Assembly: GCA_017938405.1 (NCBI GenBank)
Contig: JAGBBP010000011.1
Span: 1 to 64,000, forward strand
Length of the DNA stretch: 64,000 nt
Origin: Lachnospiraceae bacterium
GTDB taxonomy: Bacteria > Bacillota > Clostridia > Lachnospirales > Lachnospiraceae
Direction of reading: 5' to 3'
The notes below the pieces were generated by a model, which worked only from the letters and a program-made list of their open reading frames with translations, ran no database searches and was not told the DNA's origin. Below, in pieces: positions 22,235-28,334 of the stretch. A program made the position numbers and the translations under genes. Each line of letters opens with the position of its first letter. Position 1 is the stretch's first letter.

Positions 22235-22843
22235 ATGTGGAGTTATGAAAGAAGATTACAGTACCCGGTAAACATTAAGCAGACCAATCCGAAGCTGGCT
22301 ATGGTCATTATGAGCCAGTTCGGCGGACCGGACGGGGAATTGGCTGCATCCATGCGCTACCTTTCCCAGCGGTATGCAATGCCGTACCGGGAAGTGGCAG
22401 GAACGTTGACGGACATCGGCACCGAGGAGTTGGCTCACATGGAGATTGTGTCCGCAATCATCCATCAGCTGACCAAAGACCTGACGCCGGAGGAAATCGC
22501 AGCATCCGGTTTTGACAAGTATTATGTGGACCATACTTTGGGCCTTTGGCCGCAGGCTGCGGGCGGTGTGCCGTTTACCTCTACTTTCTTCCAGTCCAAG
22601 GGAGATCCGATTACGGACCTTGTCGAGGATATGGCAGCGGAGCAGAAGGCCCGCACCACCTATGACAACATCCTTCGTCTGGTACACGACCATGATGTAT
22701 GCGACCCGATTCGCTATCTCCGCGAACGGGAAATCGTGCATTTCCAGCGGTTTGGTGAGAGTCTTCGTATTGTACAGGATAATTTGGATTCCAAGAATTT
22801 CTATGCCATCAATCCGGCATTTTTGGCGGATAAGGCGAGATAA
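22235..22843 (+). CDS. cotJC: Spore coat Mn-catalase-like protein CotJC
   Basis: 202 residues, full length. Ferritin-like four-helix fold with the expected dimanganese ligands: Glu in GPDGELAASMRY, Glu and His in GTEELAHMEI, Glu in AAEQKARTTY and His in REIVHFQRF. It probably removes hydrogen peroxide at the spore surface. The intact copy; two truncated relatives lie at 27885 and 62658. A stem-loop follows at 22866. Confidence 0.95.
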   Translation: MWSYERRLQYPVNIKQTNPKLAMVIMSQFGGPDGELAASMRYLSQRYAMPYREVAGTLTDIGTEELAHMEIVSAIIHQLTKDLTPEEIAASGFDKYYVDHTLGLWPQAAGGVPFTSTFFQSKGDPITDLVEDMAAEQKARTTYDNILRLVHDHDVCDPIRYLREREIVHFQRFGESLRIVQDNLDSKNFYAINPAFLADKAR

Positions 22844-23043: not shown

Positions 23044-23382
23044 ATGTGTACCAGGAATCAGTTAAATGACATTTCGGGACAGATGGTTTCGATTTACCGG
23101 GACATTTATGGGGATGCTGTGACCGGTGTGTTCTTGTACGGTTCTTATGCCAGAGGAGACTTTGAAAAGGATTCCGATGTGGATATCGTGGCGATTGTCA
23201 AGGGAGAACGCCTGGCGTTACAGGATAAGTTACGGACAATCTGGGATTTGTCTGCGGATATCGGATTGGAGCATGATACAGTGGTATCTCCGACGGTAAT
23301 ACCTTATGACGAATTTGAACAATACAAGGAAGTCCTTCCTTACTACAGAAACATTGCAAGGGAGGGGCTGCGGATTGGATAA
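23044..23382 (+). CDS. MNT-family nucleotidyltransferase antitoxin
   Basis: 112 residues with the minimal nucleotidyltransferase motif GSYARGDFEKDSDVDIV (residues 34-50): Gly-Ser plus the two catalytic Asp. In known MNT/HEPN modules the enzyme modifies and silences the HEPN toxin. Its gene overlaps the HEPN gene by 8 nt, which fixes coupling. It opens the accessory patch right after cotJC. Confidence 0.88.
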   Translation: MCTRNQLNDISGQMVSIYRDIYGDAVTGVFLYGSYARGDFEKDSDVDIVAIVKGERLALQDKLRTIWDLSADIGLEHDTVVSPTVIPYDEFEQYKEVLPYYRNIAREGLRIG

Positions 23383-23764
23383 TTTGGTAAAGTATCGATT
23401 GGATAATGCGCAGGAAAAGTTGGAATCTGCAGAGATTTTATTGGATTCCGGAAAGTATAAGGATTCCATCGGTCGGTCTTATTATGCAATCTTTTCTGCC
23501 GTGCGAGCTGTGTTGGCGGTAGACAGAGTGGACTTTTCCAAACATGCCGGTGTAATAGCGTATTTCCAAAAGGAATATGTAAAGACAAAGATTTTTGATG
23601 TGAAGTATTCAAAGTATTTGCAATCTGCGTTTCAGATTCGAAATGTATGTGATTACGATGATTTCTTTATCGCATCGAAGCAGGATGCAGAGGTGCAGTT
23701 GGAGTGTGCGAAAGAGTTCTTGGATGCGGTGAAAACGTATTTGGGAACGAGGGAAGAAGTTTAG
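23375..23764 (+). CDS. HEPN-domain protein, probable toxin of the MNT pair
   Basis: About 129 residues from TTG 23375, which has GGGAGGGG at the right distance and overlaps the MNT stop. All-alpha HEPN fold with SIGRSYYAIFSAVRAVL and the late motif IRNVCDYDDFF. The usual RNase motif R-X4-6-H appears here as R followed by Y, so RNase activity is uncertain. The HEPN partner normally dimerises and is held by the antitoxin. Confidence 0.82.
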   Translation: MDNLVKYRLDNAQEKLESAEILLDSGKYKDSIGRSYYAIFSAVRAVLAVDRVDFSKHAGVIAYFQKEYVKTKIFDVKYSKYLQSAFQIRNVCDYDDFFIASKQDAEVQLECAKEFLDAVKTYLGTREEV

Positions 23765-23896: not shown

Positions 23897-24772
23897 GTGG
23901 ATTGGCTTAAAGGAATGAATGATGTTGTTGGGTATATTGAGAAAAATCTTACACAACCGATACAATATGAGTCACTGGCTCGTATAGTGGGATGTTCAGT
24001 GTATGAGTTTTTTAGAATTTTTTCTTTCTTAGCAGGAATGTCTATTTCAGAGTATATTCGTCGAAGGAGGTTATCTCAGGCTGTTTTCGACATTCAATCC
24101 GGCAATGAGAAAATAATTGATATTGCTTTGAAATACTGCTATGAATCCCCAACGGCATTTACAAGAGCGTTTAAGGAATTGCATGGCGTAACGCCTTCCG
24201 GTGTTCAGAAAGGTGGTGTTCCTTTAAAGTCTTATTCGCCAATCTCCTTTATACTTACTATTGAAGGAGGTAATGCTATGAATTTTCGAATTGAACACAA
24301 GGACAGTTTTCGAATCATGGGTTTATCAGGGTATGAGACCACAGAGTGCAACGATGGTGACACGTTAACACCGTTATGGCGTGAATTTATGGATAACTAT
24401 AATTCGCGTTTGTGGAATAATGGAGGTTCAGATAATTATTATACTGCTCCGTTCTGGCAGGTTGCCGCATATTCGTACAAATCAGATGATGGAAGAACAA
24501 AAACAATTATTGGAGCTGAGTGTAAAGGACAGTGTATTAAAGATATGACGGTTGAAACAATACCGTCAGCGACATGGGCAGTGTTTCCGATTAATTCGGT
24601 GACTGGAATTAATCATGTTCCTGCTGCGTACACAAAAATTTTGACAGAATGGTTTCCTGCAAGCAATTATTGCAGAAATGAACTTGTTCCGACTTTAGAG
24701 GTGTTTCCTCCGGGAGATGCAAGTTCAGATGATTATACATGGGAAATTTGGATTCCGGTAATAGAAAAATAG
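23897..24772 (+). CDS. AraC-family regulator with GyrI-like effector domain
   Basis: 291 residues from GTG 23897 (AAAGGAGGG upstream). Two AraC helix-turn-helices fill residues 8-105 (ESLARIVGCSVYEFFRIF, and IALKYCYESPTAFTRAFKELHGVTPS). Residues 127-290 form a GyrI-like domain that binds small cationic compounds (LWREFMDNY, GAECKG, WEIWIPVI). This is the Rob/BmrR-like layout, often linked to drug sensing. Its base use is clearly more AT-rich than the cotJ or clpC regions, a hint of transfer. No target transporter is adjacent. Confidence 0.9.
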   Translation: MDWLKGMNDVVGYIEKNLTQPIQYESLARIVGCSVYEFFRIFSFLAGMSISEYIRRRRLSQAVFDIQSGNEKIIDIALKYCYESPTAFTRAFKELHGVTPSGVQKGGVPLKSYSPISFILTIEGGNAMNFRIEHKDSFRIMGLSGYETTECNDGDTLTPLWREFMDNYNSRLWNNGGSDNYYTAPFWQVAAYSYKSDDGRTKTIIGAECKGQCIKDMTVETIPSATWAVFPINSVTGINHVPAAYTKILTEWFPASNYCRNELVPTLEVFPPGDASSDDYTWEIWIPVIEK

Positions 24773-25138: not shown

Positions 25139-25379
25139 CAAAGGAGCCGAAAAGGAGCCGAAAAGGAGCCAAAAAAGGAGCCGGAAAGTGAGCGATAAAA
25201 TGAGCGATAACGCGGAAACTTATCACCGGGATGTTTCCGAAGATACCGAAATGAAACAAGTTCAAAAACTTCAGCCACCATTTTCATGGTGGCTGACTCT
25301 ATTTCACCCTCACATAAAAGGTCGATTTTCCGACACCGCTTCGCATGAGTTCGCCGGCGGCGACCATTTTTCGCAATGA
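25139..25379 (+). pseudogene. Tandem AAGGAGCC repeats and a possible gene tail
   Basis: Four copies of an AAAGGAGCC unit (25139-25187) run into an open frame with VSDKMSDNAETYHRDVSEDTE that stops within the fic region. Lys/Glu/Pro repeats followed by SDKMSDN resemble linkers in AlbA_2/ATPase-type regulators, which suggests a decayed C-terminus. It could also be chance. A GTG at 25188 with an ideal Shine-Dalgarno gives a 63-residue frame that overlaps the fic gene antisense. Confidence 0.25.
25273..25294 (-). terminator. Terminator of the minus-strand fic gene
   Basis: AGCCACCA / TGGTGGCT around six bases, followed in the minus direction by GAAGTTTTTG. Confidence 0.7.
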
Positions 25380-26345
25380 GCCTTCGATGGAGCTGATGCT
25401 GAGGGAAGGGCATAATTCGCGGATGTCCTGCTTGGTGAATTTACCGATTTTGTTTTGTGTGGCTTTACGGACCATGTCGATGGCCGGAAGCTTTTCTTCT
25501 ACGATGGAGAACCGGTCTTCAAAGTCGTGGTAGGCGGCAAGGATGGTTCTGAGAAGATATTTGATGAACGGGAGGGAATCTTCCTTCCCCTCGTGCCAAA
25601 CGTCCTGGGACCTGTTCAGGGAATCGTAGTAAAGGTCTTTCTTCTTTGCTATCTTTGCTTCTAAAGAAATGTATTTTCCGACATAAAATTCGTTCCGGTA
25701 GAGCAGAAGCGTGGTAAGGAGTCTGCTCATGCGTCCGTTTCCGTCGTTGAACGGGTGGATGCAGAGAAAGTCGTGGATGAAGATCGGAATGGCAATGAGG
25801 GGTTCTACTTCCATATTGCCGATCACACGGTTGAATTCCTCGCAGATTTTATCCAGGGCTTCCGGTGTTTCAAAGGGAGCCGGCGGTGTAAAGAGCGTTT
25901 CCACGTGTCCGTCCGGATACTTTGCCGTAATGTAGTTCTGTGTGTTTTTGGTCCGTCCGGCCATGGGATTATTCATGTGGCTGTACATAATCTTATGGAG
26001 CTGGAGGATATAATTTTGTGAAAGAGGAATTGCGTCAAAGCTTTCGTGAATGATGTTTAGCACGTCTCTGTAGCCGGCAATCTCCTGTTCGTCGCGGTTC
26101 TTCGGCGTGGTCTTTTCTTCCACCAGTTGTCTCATACGGGTGCTGGTGGTAACGATACCTTCAATGGCATTGGATGCCTCGGTACTCTGTATTTTTGCGA
26201 TTTCTACGAGCTTTTCCAGTTCTTCCGGACGCTGCTTTAAATAGAGCTCCTGTTTGCCTGCTTCCTTATAGATGGCAGCAATGAGTCCGAGGATATCGGA
26301 ATCCCAGCTTTGTTCTTTGATTTTTGAGTAATTAAAGTCTCTCAT
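25299..26345 (-). CDS. Fic-domain protein with C-terminal winged helix
   Basis: 348 residues. The Fic core motif HPFNDGNGRMSR (near residue 196) has the catalytic His and the phosphate-binding Asn/Arg, so AMP transfer should be possible. An N-terminal inhibitory helix with STEASNAIEG (S/T-x3-E-G type) indicates a self-inhibited class II enzyme. The last 60 residues look like a winged helix (FTKQDIRELCPSLSISSIEGSLRKMVAAGELMRSG), so it may regulate its own gene through the repeats in its promoter. AAAGGAGG precedes the ATG. A second Fic gene lies divergently. Confidence 0.92.
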   Translation of the reverse strand: MRDFNYSKIKEQSWDSDILGLIAAIYKEAGKQELYLKQRPEELEKLVEIAKIQSTEASNAIEGIVTTSTRMRQLVEEKTTPKNRDEQEIAGYRDVLNIIHESFDAIPLSQNYILQLHKIMYSHMNNPMAGRTKNTQNYITAKYPDGHVETLFTPPAPFETPEALDKICEEFNRVIGNMEVEPLIAIPIFIHDFLCIHPFNDGNGRMSRLLTTLLLYRNEFYVGKYISLEAKIAKKKDLYYDSLNRSQDVWHEGKEDSLPFIKYLLRTILAAYHDFEDRFSIVEEKLPAIDMVRKATQNKIGKFTKQDIRELCPSLSISSIEGSLRKMVAAGELMRSGVGKSTFYVRVK

Positions 26346-26449
26346 TCCCTTATCCTCCTTTCTTTCCCTTAAATAGTAGCAGAAAATAAGGGAAAAGTCA
26401 ATTGCTAAGGGGAAGATTACCTTATTTCTTGGAGCGGATTAAGGGAAAA
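26345..26449 (-). promoter_or_regulatory. fic promoter with five TTCCCTTA operators
   Basis: On the minus strand TTGACT (26401-26396), 17-nt spacer, TACTAT (26378-26373). Five copies of TTCCCTTA/TAAGGGAA lie at 26345, 26364, 26387 (inside the spacer), 26406 (one extra G) and 26440. Three lie in one direction and two in the other. The spacing suggests a bound regulator that blocks RNA polymerase. Confidence 0.7.
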
Positions 26450-26543: not shown

Positions 26544-26690
26544 ACTTTTTGAAATAAGGATGAAAAATGTAAGTTCTTATTTCAAAAAGTGGCTTGAAAT
26601 TGAAATAAAAATAAAATCTGTGATTCTTATTTCAAAAAGTAGTGACTTTTTGAAATAAAGGGGGTATAATAAGGGTAGTTATTTCAAAAA
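26544..26690 (+). promoter_or_regulatory. Operator array before the second fic gene
   Basis: Five copies of CTTTTTGAAATAA(G): + at 26544 and 26645, - at 26575, 26625 and 26678. A degenerate copy lies near 26592. The pair 26645/26678 brackets TATAAT (26664-26669). The motif is unrelated to that of the other fic gene. Confidence 0.75.
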
Positions 26691-26701
26691 GGGGTGATTC
26701 T

Positions 26702-27841
26702 ATGAATCGAGCAGGAAGCTATGTAGATAACTTAACAGGAGAGTCTGCGTATCAATCGTTTAAGCCGAGTCCATTACCTCCGATGCCGGAGCTTACAATG
26801 GACGAAGAAACGGTACGGCTCATAATAGATGCAAACAATCAGTTGGCAAAGCTTGATACTGCATCACAGCTGATTGCCAATGCAGATTTGTTTATATCGA
26901 TGTATGTCAGAAAGGAAGCCTTGATTTCTTCTCAAATTGAAGGAACACAGTGTACTCTTGACGATGTACTTGATCCGGAGGTGGATACGAATGCAAATCT
27001 GGATGTATCGGATGTTATTAATTATGTAAAAGCAACGCAGTACGCACTGATGCGTTTGGAGAAGTTCCCGCTGTGTTGCAGATTCATCCGGGAAGTACAT
27101 GAGGTATTGATGGAAGGCGTTCGTGGAGAGGATAAAACGCCGGGAGAATTCAGACGTTCTCAAAATTGGATAGGGCCGGCAAACTGCTCATTGAAAGAGG
27201 CCAGATATATTCCGCCGAATGTAGAGGATATGCAGGCTGCTATGTCGGATTTGGAAAAGTATATGAATGAAAGTGTGGAGCATGACCCGTTGGTTCGGGT
27301 GGCTCTGATTCACTATCAATTTGAAACTATCCATCCGTTTTTAGACGGAAACGGAAGAATCGGGAGGCTGCTGATATTGCTTTATCTGATGGAGCAGAGG
27401 GTGCTTACGAAGCCGGTAATATATATATCCTATTTCCTGAAAAAGAACCAGGTGGAGTACTACGACCGAATCAGTGAGGTCAGAAGAAGCGGCAATTTTG
27501 AACAATGGATTAGATTCTTTTTGGAAGCGGTAAGTAAAGCAGCTGCAGATTCTTTGGAATCCATCAACAAGCTTTCGCATTTACATGACGTAAACGTAGA
27601 AAAGCTTCCGAAAACGACGCGGAGCAAGGACAACCTACGTGCGGTGTTTGATTATATCGAGCAGTATCCGATTATTGATATTAAGAAAACAGCAAAAGAA
27701 CTGGAGATTAGTTACAATACAGTAGCTACAGCCGTAAAGAAGCTTGTGGAGCTGGGGATATTGAAGGAAACAACCAATGCTGCGCGAAACCGAGTGTTTG
27801 CCTATGAGGAGTATTTGGAGATACTGAGAAAGGATACGTAG
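26702..27841 (+). CDS. Fic-domain protein with DNA-binding C-terminus
   Basis: 379 residues. The order is Fic N-terminal domain with inhibitory motif ISSQIEGT (about 75-82), Fic core HPFLDGNGRIGR (about 218-229), then a C-terminal winged helix (about 310-375: DIKKTAKELEISYNTVATAVKKLVELGIL). The active-site loop is intact, and self-inhibition by the helix is expected. The DNA-binding end and the repeated operator in its promoter argue for autoregulation. GGGG stands 8 nt before the ATG. It is a different subgroup from the minus-strand fic gene. Confidence 0.92.
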   Translation: MNRAGSYVDNLTGESAYQSFKPSPLPPMPELTMDEETVRLIIDANNQLAKLDTASQLIANADLFISMYVRKEALISSQIEGTQCTLDDVLDPEVDTNANLDVSDVINYVKATQYALMRLEKFPLCCRFIREVHEVLMEGVRGEDKTPGEFRRSQNWIGPANCSLKEARYIPPNVEDMQAAMSDLEKYMNESVEHDPLVRVALIHYQFETIHPFLDGNGRIGRLLILLYLMEQRVLTKPVIYISYFLKKNQVEYYDRISEVRRSGNFEQWIRFFLEAVSKAAADSLESINKLSHLHDVNVEKLPKTTRSKDNLRAVFDYIEQYPIIDIKKTAKELEISYNTVATAVKKLVELGILKETTNAARNRVFAYEEYLEILRKDT

Positions 27842-27884: not shown

Positions 27885-28334
27885 ATGCGCAATACCGATG
27901 CGCCTGTGGGCACGGAAGAACTGGCACACATGGAGATTGTATCCGCCATCATCCATCAGTTGACCAAAGATTTGACACCGGAAGAAATTGCAGCATCCGG
28001 GTTTGACAAGTATTATGTGGACCATACCTTGGGACTTTGGCCGCAGGCAGCGGGCGGGGTACCGTTTACCTCCACCTTCTTCCAGTCCAAGGGGGATCCG
28101 ATTACGGACCTCACCGAGGATATGGCAGCGGAGCAGAAAGCACGTACCACCTATGATAACATCCTTCGTCTGGTACACGACCACGATGTATGCGATCCGA
28201 TTCGCTATTTGCGTGAGCGTGAAATCGTGCACTTTCAGCGGTTTGGTGAGAGTCTTCGTATCGTGCAGGATAATCTGGATTCCAAGAACTTCTATGCCAT
28301 CAATCCGGCATTTTTGGCGGATAAGGCGAGATAA
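27885..28334 (+). pseudogene. 5'-truncated cotJC copy (second copy)
   Basis: After a 29-bp non-cotJC lead, the frame runs from GTEELAHMEI to the natural cotJC end NPAFLADKAR, 137 residues that match the intact gene almost perfectly in protein. Many synonymous DNA changes are present. The first 60 residues, including the first metal-binding Glu, are missing, and no ribosome site precedes it. It must be inactive or nearly so. The synonymous divergence means it came from a separately evolving cotJC, not a recent local copy. Confidence 0.85.

What the first reader, a model, noticed from the sequence alone, without database searches (positions are those of the whole stretch)
26544..26690. Second fic gene has an unrelated but equally dense operator array
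Five copies of CTTTTTGAAATAA in alternating orientation within 150 bp, two of them bracketing TATAAT. Two divergent Fic genes with separate operator codes side by side argue that DNA binding by Fic proteins with C-terminal winged helices is a general control mode.
Basis: partly seen in the sequence, partly recalled or inferred. Interest (0 to 1): 0.6.

Follow-up and report, generated by a model that had tools for sequence, protein, structure and literature searches.

The report
Fic toxin gene's own repressor sites
Upstream of a gene for a Fic enzyme related to the anti-phage toxin SoFic lies a regular row of six DNA sites over the promoter, and comparison of more than a hundred relatives shows that the enzyme's own tail domain almost certainly reads these sites to hold its gene down.

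Summary
Five exact CTTTTTGAAATAA copies lie at 26545-26691 and are the only exact copies in the 2.9 Mb genome. A sixth, degenerate copy (26596-26608) makes the array strictly alternating, with centre spacings of 32/19/31/19/33 bp; the five exact copies alone run + - - + -.

The array is conserved upstream of SoFic-like homologues across phyla, on a consensus promoter: one site in the -35/-10 spacer, the next just after the -10. 82 of 134 fic upstream regions score above threshold, against 4 of 442 for other genes.

The operator word changes with the recognition helix of the C-terminal wHTH: N339 goes with TGAAAT, S with TCAAAA, K with TAAAAT. Agreement is 76 of 76, including 23 of 23 loci fetched after the rule was noted; residue 339 ranks first of all columns tested. 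So the Fic protein itself is almost certainly the binder, and autorepression by promoter occlusion is the best model.

CccR of Yersinia is a footprinted precedent with one inverted pair. New are the family-wide multi-dimer array and the residue-to-base code in a defence-Fic family.

The parts
26545..26557 (+). Operator half-site O1 CTTTTTGAAATAA
   Evidence: exact match; convergent partner of O2, 32 bp centre to centre
26577..26589 (-). Operator half-site O2
   Evidence: exact match
26596..26608 (+).
   Evidence: 8/11 match at the position the array predicts: 19 bp from O2, 31 bp from O4
26627..26639 (-). Operator half-site O4
   Evidence: exact match; conserved position in 80 of 84 homologues with confident arrays (position was part of how the arrays were found)
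26642..26647 (+). Predicted -35 box GTGACT (4/6), in the 6-base gap between O4 and O5 and running into O5
   Evidence: 17 bp from TATAAT; in homologues TTGACA-like at the same place
26646..26658 (+). Operator half-site O5, in the -35/-10 spacer
   Evidence: exact match
26665..26670 (+). Predicted -10 box TATAAT, between O5 and O6
   Evidence: sequence; a TATAAT-like box at the same offset or within one base of it in most of 84 homologues
26679..26691 (-). Operator half-site O6, over the predicted transcription start and touching the ribosome-binding site
   Evidence: exact match
26690..26696 (+). Likely ribosome-binding site AGGGGTG
   Evidence: sequence, ahead of ATG 26702
26702..27841 (+). 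fic2: SoFic-like class II Fic protein, 379 aa, with C-terminal wHTH
   Evidence: Pfam Fic_N and Fic; PADLOC SoFic E 4e-121; nearest fold 3zcn SoFic
26927..26944 (+). Class II inhibitory helix motif SSQIEG (residues 76-81, (S/T)xxxE(G/N))
   Evidence: S76, E80 invariant in alignment A1
27332..27367 (+). Fic catalytic motif HPFLDGNGRIGR (residues 211-222)
   Evidence: invariant core
27632..27829 (+). wHTH domain, residues 311-376 (three helices, two-stranded wing, last helix)
   Evidence: AlphaFold2 model from 42 homologues, mean pLDDT 90.6
27716..27718 (+). Codon of Asn339, second residue of the recognition helix (338-350); sets operator positions 5-6
   Evidence: top-ranked covarying column
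25299..26345 (-). fic1: divergent second Fic gene, with its own operator word
   Evidence: Pfam Fic; PADLOC SoFic E 3e-39
26346..26449 (-). fic1 promoter/operator region: TTTTCCCTTA-type words at about 26346-26353, 26363-26372, 26387-26396, 26407-26416, 26440-26449
   Evidence: sequence; conserved in L010, L012, L225, L226, L247

Best explanation
The array is the operator of fic2 and is read by the fic2 product itself. Dimers of this SoFic-like class II Fic protein bind convergent pairs of CTTTTTGAAATAA through the C-terminal winged helix. In the window there are three such pairs (O1/O2, O3/O4, O5/O6; 31-33 bp between centres), set next to each other at 19 bp. The pair O5/O6 straddles the -10 box, with O5 in the -35/-10 spacer and O6 over the start of transcription, so occupancy should block RNA polymerase. 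The upstream pairs would add cooperativity. Result: negative autoregulation that keeps a potentially toxic AMP-transferase low until something lifts repression. Shown here: the array, its conservation and geometry, its overlap with a consensus promoter, and residue-to-base covariation with the wHTH. Inferred: physical binding, dimer pairing, repression as opposed to activation, and the toxic and defence role (from SoFic and CccR).
For: Site found only at this gene in its genome. Array upstream of fic2 homologues far above shuffles (63 of 82 above the shuffle 99th percentile) and above other genes' upstream regions (82/134 against 4/442 at score 17 or more; 0 of 107 AT-rich controls). Fixed geometry: in 84 confident arrays O4-like 80, O6-like 73 and O3-like 51, against 2-5 at control offsets (only the O3-like position was not used in finding the arrays). 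Promoter elements at fixed offset: both boxes at 4/6 or better in 61 of 84. Covariation: N339 with TG/GG/AG 65 of 65, S with CA/CG 9 of 9, K with TA 2 of 2, P with TT 3 of 3; residue 339 ranks first among tested columns (0.555, next 0.164). 76 of 76 agree, permutation maximum 66; 23 of 23 in loci fetched after the rule was noted. R343 goes with GGAAAT in 4 of 6, and GG never without R343. Model: residue 339 is the second residue of the recognition helix. Precedent: CccR footprint, EMSA and autorepression (PMC9755527).
Against: No binding or expression data. Several residue switches are clustered on the tree; the AU test does not reject a single origin of the S-type proteins tested (p 0.416), and only one independent N/non-N contrast lies on fully supported branches (6 on all branches, nearly all in the expected direction). 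About a third of homologues give no confident array by the motif-blind search, including S-type L101 and L132. The pairing of half-sites into dimers is inferred from spacing. Confident-site filtering dropped reverse-register calls, a small use of prior knowledge of the motif.
Confidence: 0.86

Rival explanations
1. The array is bound by an unrelated host regulator that controls fic2 and other genes.
For: AT-rich direct/inverted sites are common for many regulators; a separate AraC-GyrI regulator gene is near (23897-24772).
Against: No other exact site in the genome. The word changes with the recognition-helix residue of the encoded Fic and with that column far more than with any other. Array present across phyla with fic and not at other genes of the same loci.
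Confidence: 0.04
2. The Fic protein binds the array, but mainly to control its enzyme activity (DNA-induced dimer acting as a deAMPylase or stored inactive form), with repression secondary.
For: CbFic2 of Coxiella switches to a deAMPylating dimer on DNA (PMC10628234); three tandem dimer sites could hold several dimers.
Against: Sites are placed exactly over the promoter, as expected of a repressor; CccR's regulatory and toxic activities were reported as independent (PMC9755527); CbFic2 was tested with random DNA.
Confidence: 0.12
3. The Fic protein binds the array and activates its own promoter.
For: Upstream sites O1-O4 could recruit polymerase; a local -35 of only 4/6 in the window.
Against: O5 and O6 lie in the spacer and over +1, positions of repressors; homologues have near-consensus -35/-10 boxes that need no activator; CccR represses.
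Confidence: 0.05
4. The repeats are a structural or mobile-element feature (iterons, recombination sites, AT-rich chance).
For: The fic1-fic2 pair behaves as a movable cassette; repeats are AT-rich.
Against: Dinucleotide shuffles and AT-rich control promoters do not give such arrays; the word tracks the protein.
Confidence: 0.01

Closest known systems
CccR of Yersinia pseudotuberculosis (YPK_0951; PMC9755527)
   Same: Class II Fic domain plus C-terminal HTH; represses its own gene by binding inverted repeats near -35 and -10; dimer needed; footprint, EMSA, ITC and reporter data.
   Different: One inverted pair AGATAATCAT-N26-ATGATAATCT (36 bp centre to centre) against three pairs at 31-33 bp with 19 bp between pairs; CccR is a secreted T6SS effector; the word is unrelated.
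SoFic (Shewanella SO_4266, PDB 3eqx/3zcn; E. coli Sofic, PMC12249575)
   Same: Same domain order and fold (Foldseek TM 0.82 to 3zcn); PADLOC SoFic model matches over the full length; anti-phage toxin.
   Different: 26% identity; below the NCBIfam SoFic equivalog cutoff (196.5 against 550). PMC10628234 states DNA binding by SoFic has not been shown; PMC12249575 names no transcription role of the C-terminal domain and reports an AS1 antitoxin, of which no conserved counterpart was seen downstream here.
CbFic2 of Coxiella burnetii (CBU_0822; PMC10628234)
   Same: Fic plus wHTH; binds DNA; DNA-induced dimerisation alters activity.
   Different: Random DNA used, no operator known; acts on histones.
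Type II and IV toxin-antitoxin autoregulation (e.g. Phd-Doc, AbiEi)
   Same: Negative feedback on a toxin gene through inverted repeats at the promoter.
   Different: Here toxin-like enzyme and repressor appear to be one polypeptide, with no antitoxin partner found.

Membership tests
Class II Fic AMP-transferase | Catalytic motif HPFx(D/E)GNGRxxR | tested here: met
   HPFLDGNGRIGR, residues 211-222, core invariant in A1
Class II Fic AMP-transferase | N-terminal inhibitory helix (S/T)xxxE(G/N) | tested here: met
   SSQIEG residues 76-81, S76 and E80 invariant
Class II Fic AMP-transferase | AMPylation activity | not testable with these tools
   no assay
SoFic | PADLOC SoFic profile over the full length | tested here: met
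   E 4.4e-121, residues 16-377
SoFic | NCBIfam NF046030 equivalog cutoff | tested here: not met
   196.5 bits against 550; so SoFic-like, not a strict SoFic orthologue
SoFic | SoFic fold with C-terminal wHTH | tested here: met
   model pLDDT 90.6; nearest PDB 3zcn, TM 0.82/0.84
SoFic | Anti-phage protection | not testable with these tools
   needs plaque assays
Fic-HTH autorepressor (CccR type) | Inverted repeats over the own promoter | tested here: met
   array at 26545-26691 over -35/-10
Fic-HTH autorepressor (CccR type) | Sites specific to the own protein | tested here: met
   residue 339/operator covariation; sites unique in the genome
Fic-HTH autorepressor (CccR type) | Direct binding and repression | not testable with these tools
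   no footprint or reporter
Fic-HTH autorepressor (CccR type) | Secretion by T6SS and action in neighbours | not tested
   no T6SS search made
Type II toxin-antitoxin | Separate antitoxin gene in the operon | tested here: not met
   no conserved small ORF downstream in 121 homologous loci; upstream neighbour not tested as a partner

The most novel reading that the evidence does not exclude
The operator array is a sensor as well as a repressor: dimers parked on their own promoter are held in an inactive or deAMPylating state, and phage take-over (host DNA degradation, polymerase shut-off or ATP change) releases monomers that AMPylate a host target and at the same time lifts repression. One protein would then be toxin, antitoxin and trigger of an abortive-infection system, with a residue-to-base code kept separate between neighbouring paralogues.
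Probability: 0.12. Interest if true: 0.85.

Novelty: new variant of a known kind. Interest (0 to 1): 0.58.

Why it matters
SoFic-like proteins are among the single-gene anti-phage systems, yet the SoFic papers read here report no role for the C-terminal domain in gene control, and DNA binding by SoFic was stated as undemonstrated in 2023. The data here give a concrete operator word for more than 80 members, predict which residue reads which bases, and explain how a toxic enzyme without a found antitoxin partner can be kept at low level. The predictions (N339 with TG, S with CA, K with TA, P with TT, R343 with G) can be tested in one binding experiment, and the array offers a handle for finding the signal that turns these proteins on.

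Tried and rejected
Viral-contig scans gave about 25 distinct contigs, used as extra homologues; the three scans overlap. A claim of several proven independent N-to-S switches was dropped, because the AU test does not reject one origin and few contrasts lie on supported branches. AS1-like antitoxin downstream: no conserved small ORF. The motif as a wider regulon: not supported. R343 with GG is only partial (L099 and L107 do not fit by the automatic call; in L107 the promoter-proximal site does read GAGGAAATAA). The motif-blind pair test on single Fic1 loci is weak one by one, but strong as a set (23 of 28 at 9/10 or better, 3 expected).

Full report
Observation. Five exact copies of CTTTTTGAAATAA lie at 26545(+), 26577(-), 26627(-), 26646(+) and 26679(-), ahead of an ORF at 26702-27841. 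No other exact copy exists in the 2,900,495-base genome; 21 one-mismatch hits elsewhere are scattered single sites (26 hits in all at up to one mismatch, against 14 for the reversed control pattern). As listed, these five do not alternate (+ - - + -). A sixth site, GAAATTGAAATAA at 26596-26608(+), lies exactly where the array predicts and makes it strictly alternating: centres 26551, 26583, 26602, 26633, 26652, 26685, spacings 32/19/31/19/33. I name the six O1 to O6. In the script outputs 'O3/O4/O5' are my O4/O5/O6.

The protein. It carries Fic_N and Fic domains, the full PADLOC SoFic profile (E 4e-121), catalytic HPFLDGNGRIGR and class II inhibitory SSQIEG. Nearest solved structures are SoFic of Shewanella. 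It is below the NCBIfam SoFic equivalog cutoff, so I call it SoFic-like. Pfam shows no DNA-binding domain, but an AlphaFold2 model from 42 homologues (mean pLDDT 90.6) ends in helices 311-321, 327-334 and 338-350, a two-stranded wing 355-367 and a last helix: a winged helix with recognition helix 338-350.

Conservation. I took 80 homologous loci from GTDB genomes, and later more from whole genomes and viral contigs: 135 proteins under 95% identity. Their upstream regions carry the same layout with varying words. A search that knows only the geometry (inverted 11-mers about 19 and about 32 bp apart), not the word, scored above the 99th percentile of dinucleotide shuffles in 63 of 82 first loci. 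With 134 fic upstream regions, 82 scored 17 or more against 4 of 442 upstream regions of other ORFs from the same loci, and 0 of 107 AT-rich ones. In 84 confident arrays a further site at -48 to -55 from O5, which was not used in finding the arrays, is present in 51, against 2-5 at control offsets.

Promoter. Aligned on O5, the homologues show TTGACa at -5 and TATAAT at +18, 17 bp apart; both boxes match at 4/6 or better in 61 of 84. O5 thus fills the spacer, O4 ends just ahead of the -35, and O6 covers the start point and touches the ribosome-binding site. In the window the boxes are GTGACT 26642-26647 and TATAAT 26665-26670.

Who binds. In the first 80 loci I saw that the third residue of the xYNT stretch in the recognition helix (339) goes with the word: N with TGAAATAA, S with TCAAAATAA, K with TAAAATAA; and R343 with GGAAAT. 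The rule was written down before further loci were fetched. In 76 confident arrays with N, S or K the rule holds 76 times, 23 of them in later loci; 20,000 permutations never exceed 66. For N I counted TG, GG and AG together (60, 3, 2). Among all columns of the protein tested, residue 339 is first for operator positions 5-6 with score 0.555; the next is 0.164, outside the wHTH. Shared descent alone would raise columns all over the protein, so this points to direct reading. P339 proteins have TTTAATAA-like words, including Citrobacter and Agrobacterium plasmid homologues. Limits: the tree does not prove several independent S origins (AU p 0.416), and two S proteins (L101, L132) have no visible array.

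Generality. The divergent neighbour fic1 has TTTTCCCTTA-type words at its own promoter, and its relatives have other words (TTTCTCGTCA, TTTCTCCCAA, CTGCATAT) in comparable places; inverted pairs of 9/10 or better occur in 23 of 28, with 3 expected. Plasmid homologues from Citrobacter, Agrobacterium and Thermus also show repeated inverted words at the promoter, though the single-locus test is significant only for Agrobacterium among these three.

Mechanism. Most likely negative autoregulation by promoter occlusion. CccR, a class II Fic with a C-terminal HTH, represses its own gene through AGATAATCAT-N26-ATGATAATCT near -35 and -10 (PMC9755527), and dimerisation is needed. Here convergent pairs are 31-33 bp apart and pairs adjoin at 19 bp, so three dimers could line up on the window promoter. 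What lifts repression is unknown. DNA may also set enzyme activity, as in CbFic2 (PMC10628234). No conserved small downstream ORF like AS1 was found, so self-repression and the inhibitory helix may be the main safety.

Known or new. The kind is known from CccR. New here, as far as the searched library shows (subscription papers are mostly not held), are the regular multi-dimer array, its spread through SoFic-like proteins, and a residue-to-base code. PMC10628234 says DNA binding by SoFic had not been shown, and PMC12249575 does not mention transcription.

Surroundings. The fic1-fic2 pair is a cassette of about 2.55 kb, about 94.8% identical in two other genomes of the genus. In the window it lies, with an MNT-HEPN pair and an AraC-GyrI gene, between a complete manganese-catalase (CotJC-like) gene and a second copy of its 3' part: a small, probably mobile, conflict-gene cluster.

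Noticed in passing
window 22235-22843 and 27903-28334: A complete Mn-catalase (CotJC-like) gene and a second copy of its 3' 426 bp (90% identical) flank the fic cluster, as if an insertion duplicated the gene end; in two related genomes the cassette also sits beside this gene, on different sides.
   Followed up: partly
window 23044-23764: MNT nucleotidyltransferase and HEPN genes, overlapping, a likely toxin-antitoxin pair in the same cluster.
   Followed up: partly
window 24817 and 27851: Repeated TGATGCGTCAAAC followed by similar sequence near two boundaries of the fic segment; possible trace of a mobile element.
   Followed up: no
window 26346-26449; loci L224-L253: The fic1 family has its own operator words, changing by clade (TTTTCCCTTA, TTTCTCGTCA, TTTCTCCCAA, CTGCATAT), often with a copy next to the start codon; a second code that could be worked out in the same way.
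   Followed up: partly
L004 (G006), L006 (G007): Apparent remnants of fic2 in two other genomes of the genus (ends only, middle missing), suggesting frequent loss.
   Followed up: no
L072, L074, L080-L082, L097, L145, L216, L217: A subgroup with N339 keeps TG at operator positions 5-6 in most members, but in several the rest of the word becomes (A/C)GTTTTC instead of AAATAA; other recognition-helix residues (YI/YV with FC) may read that half.
   Followed up: no
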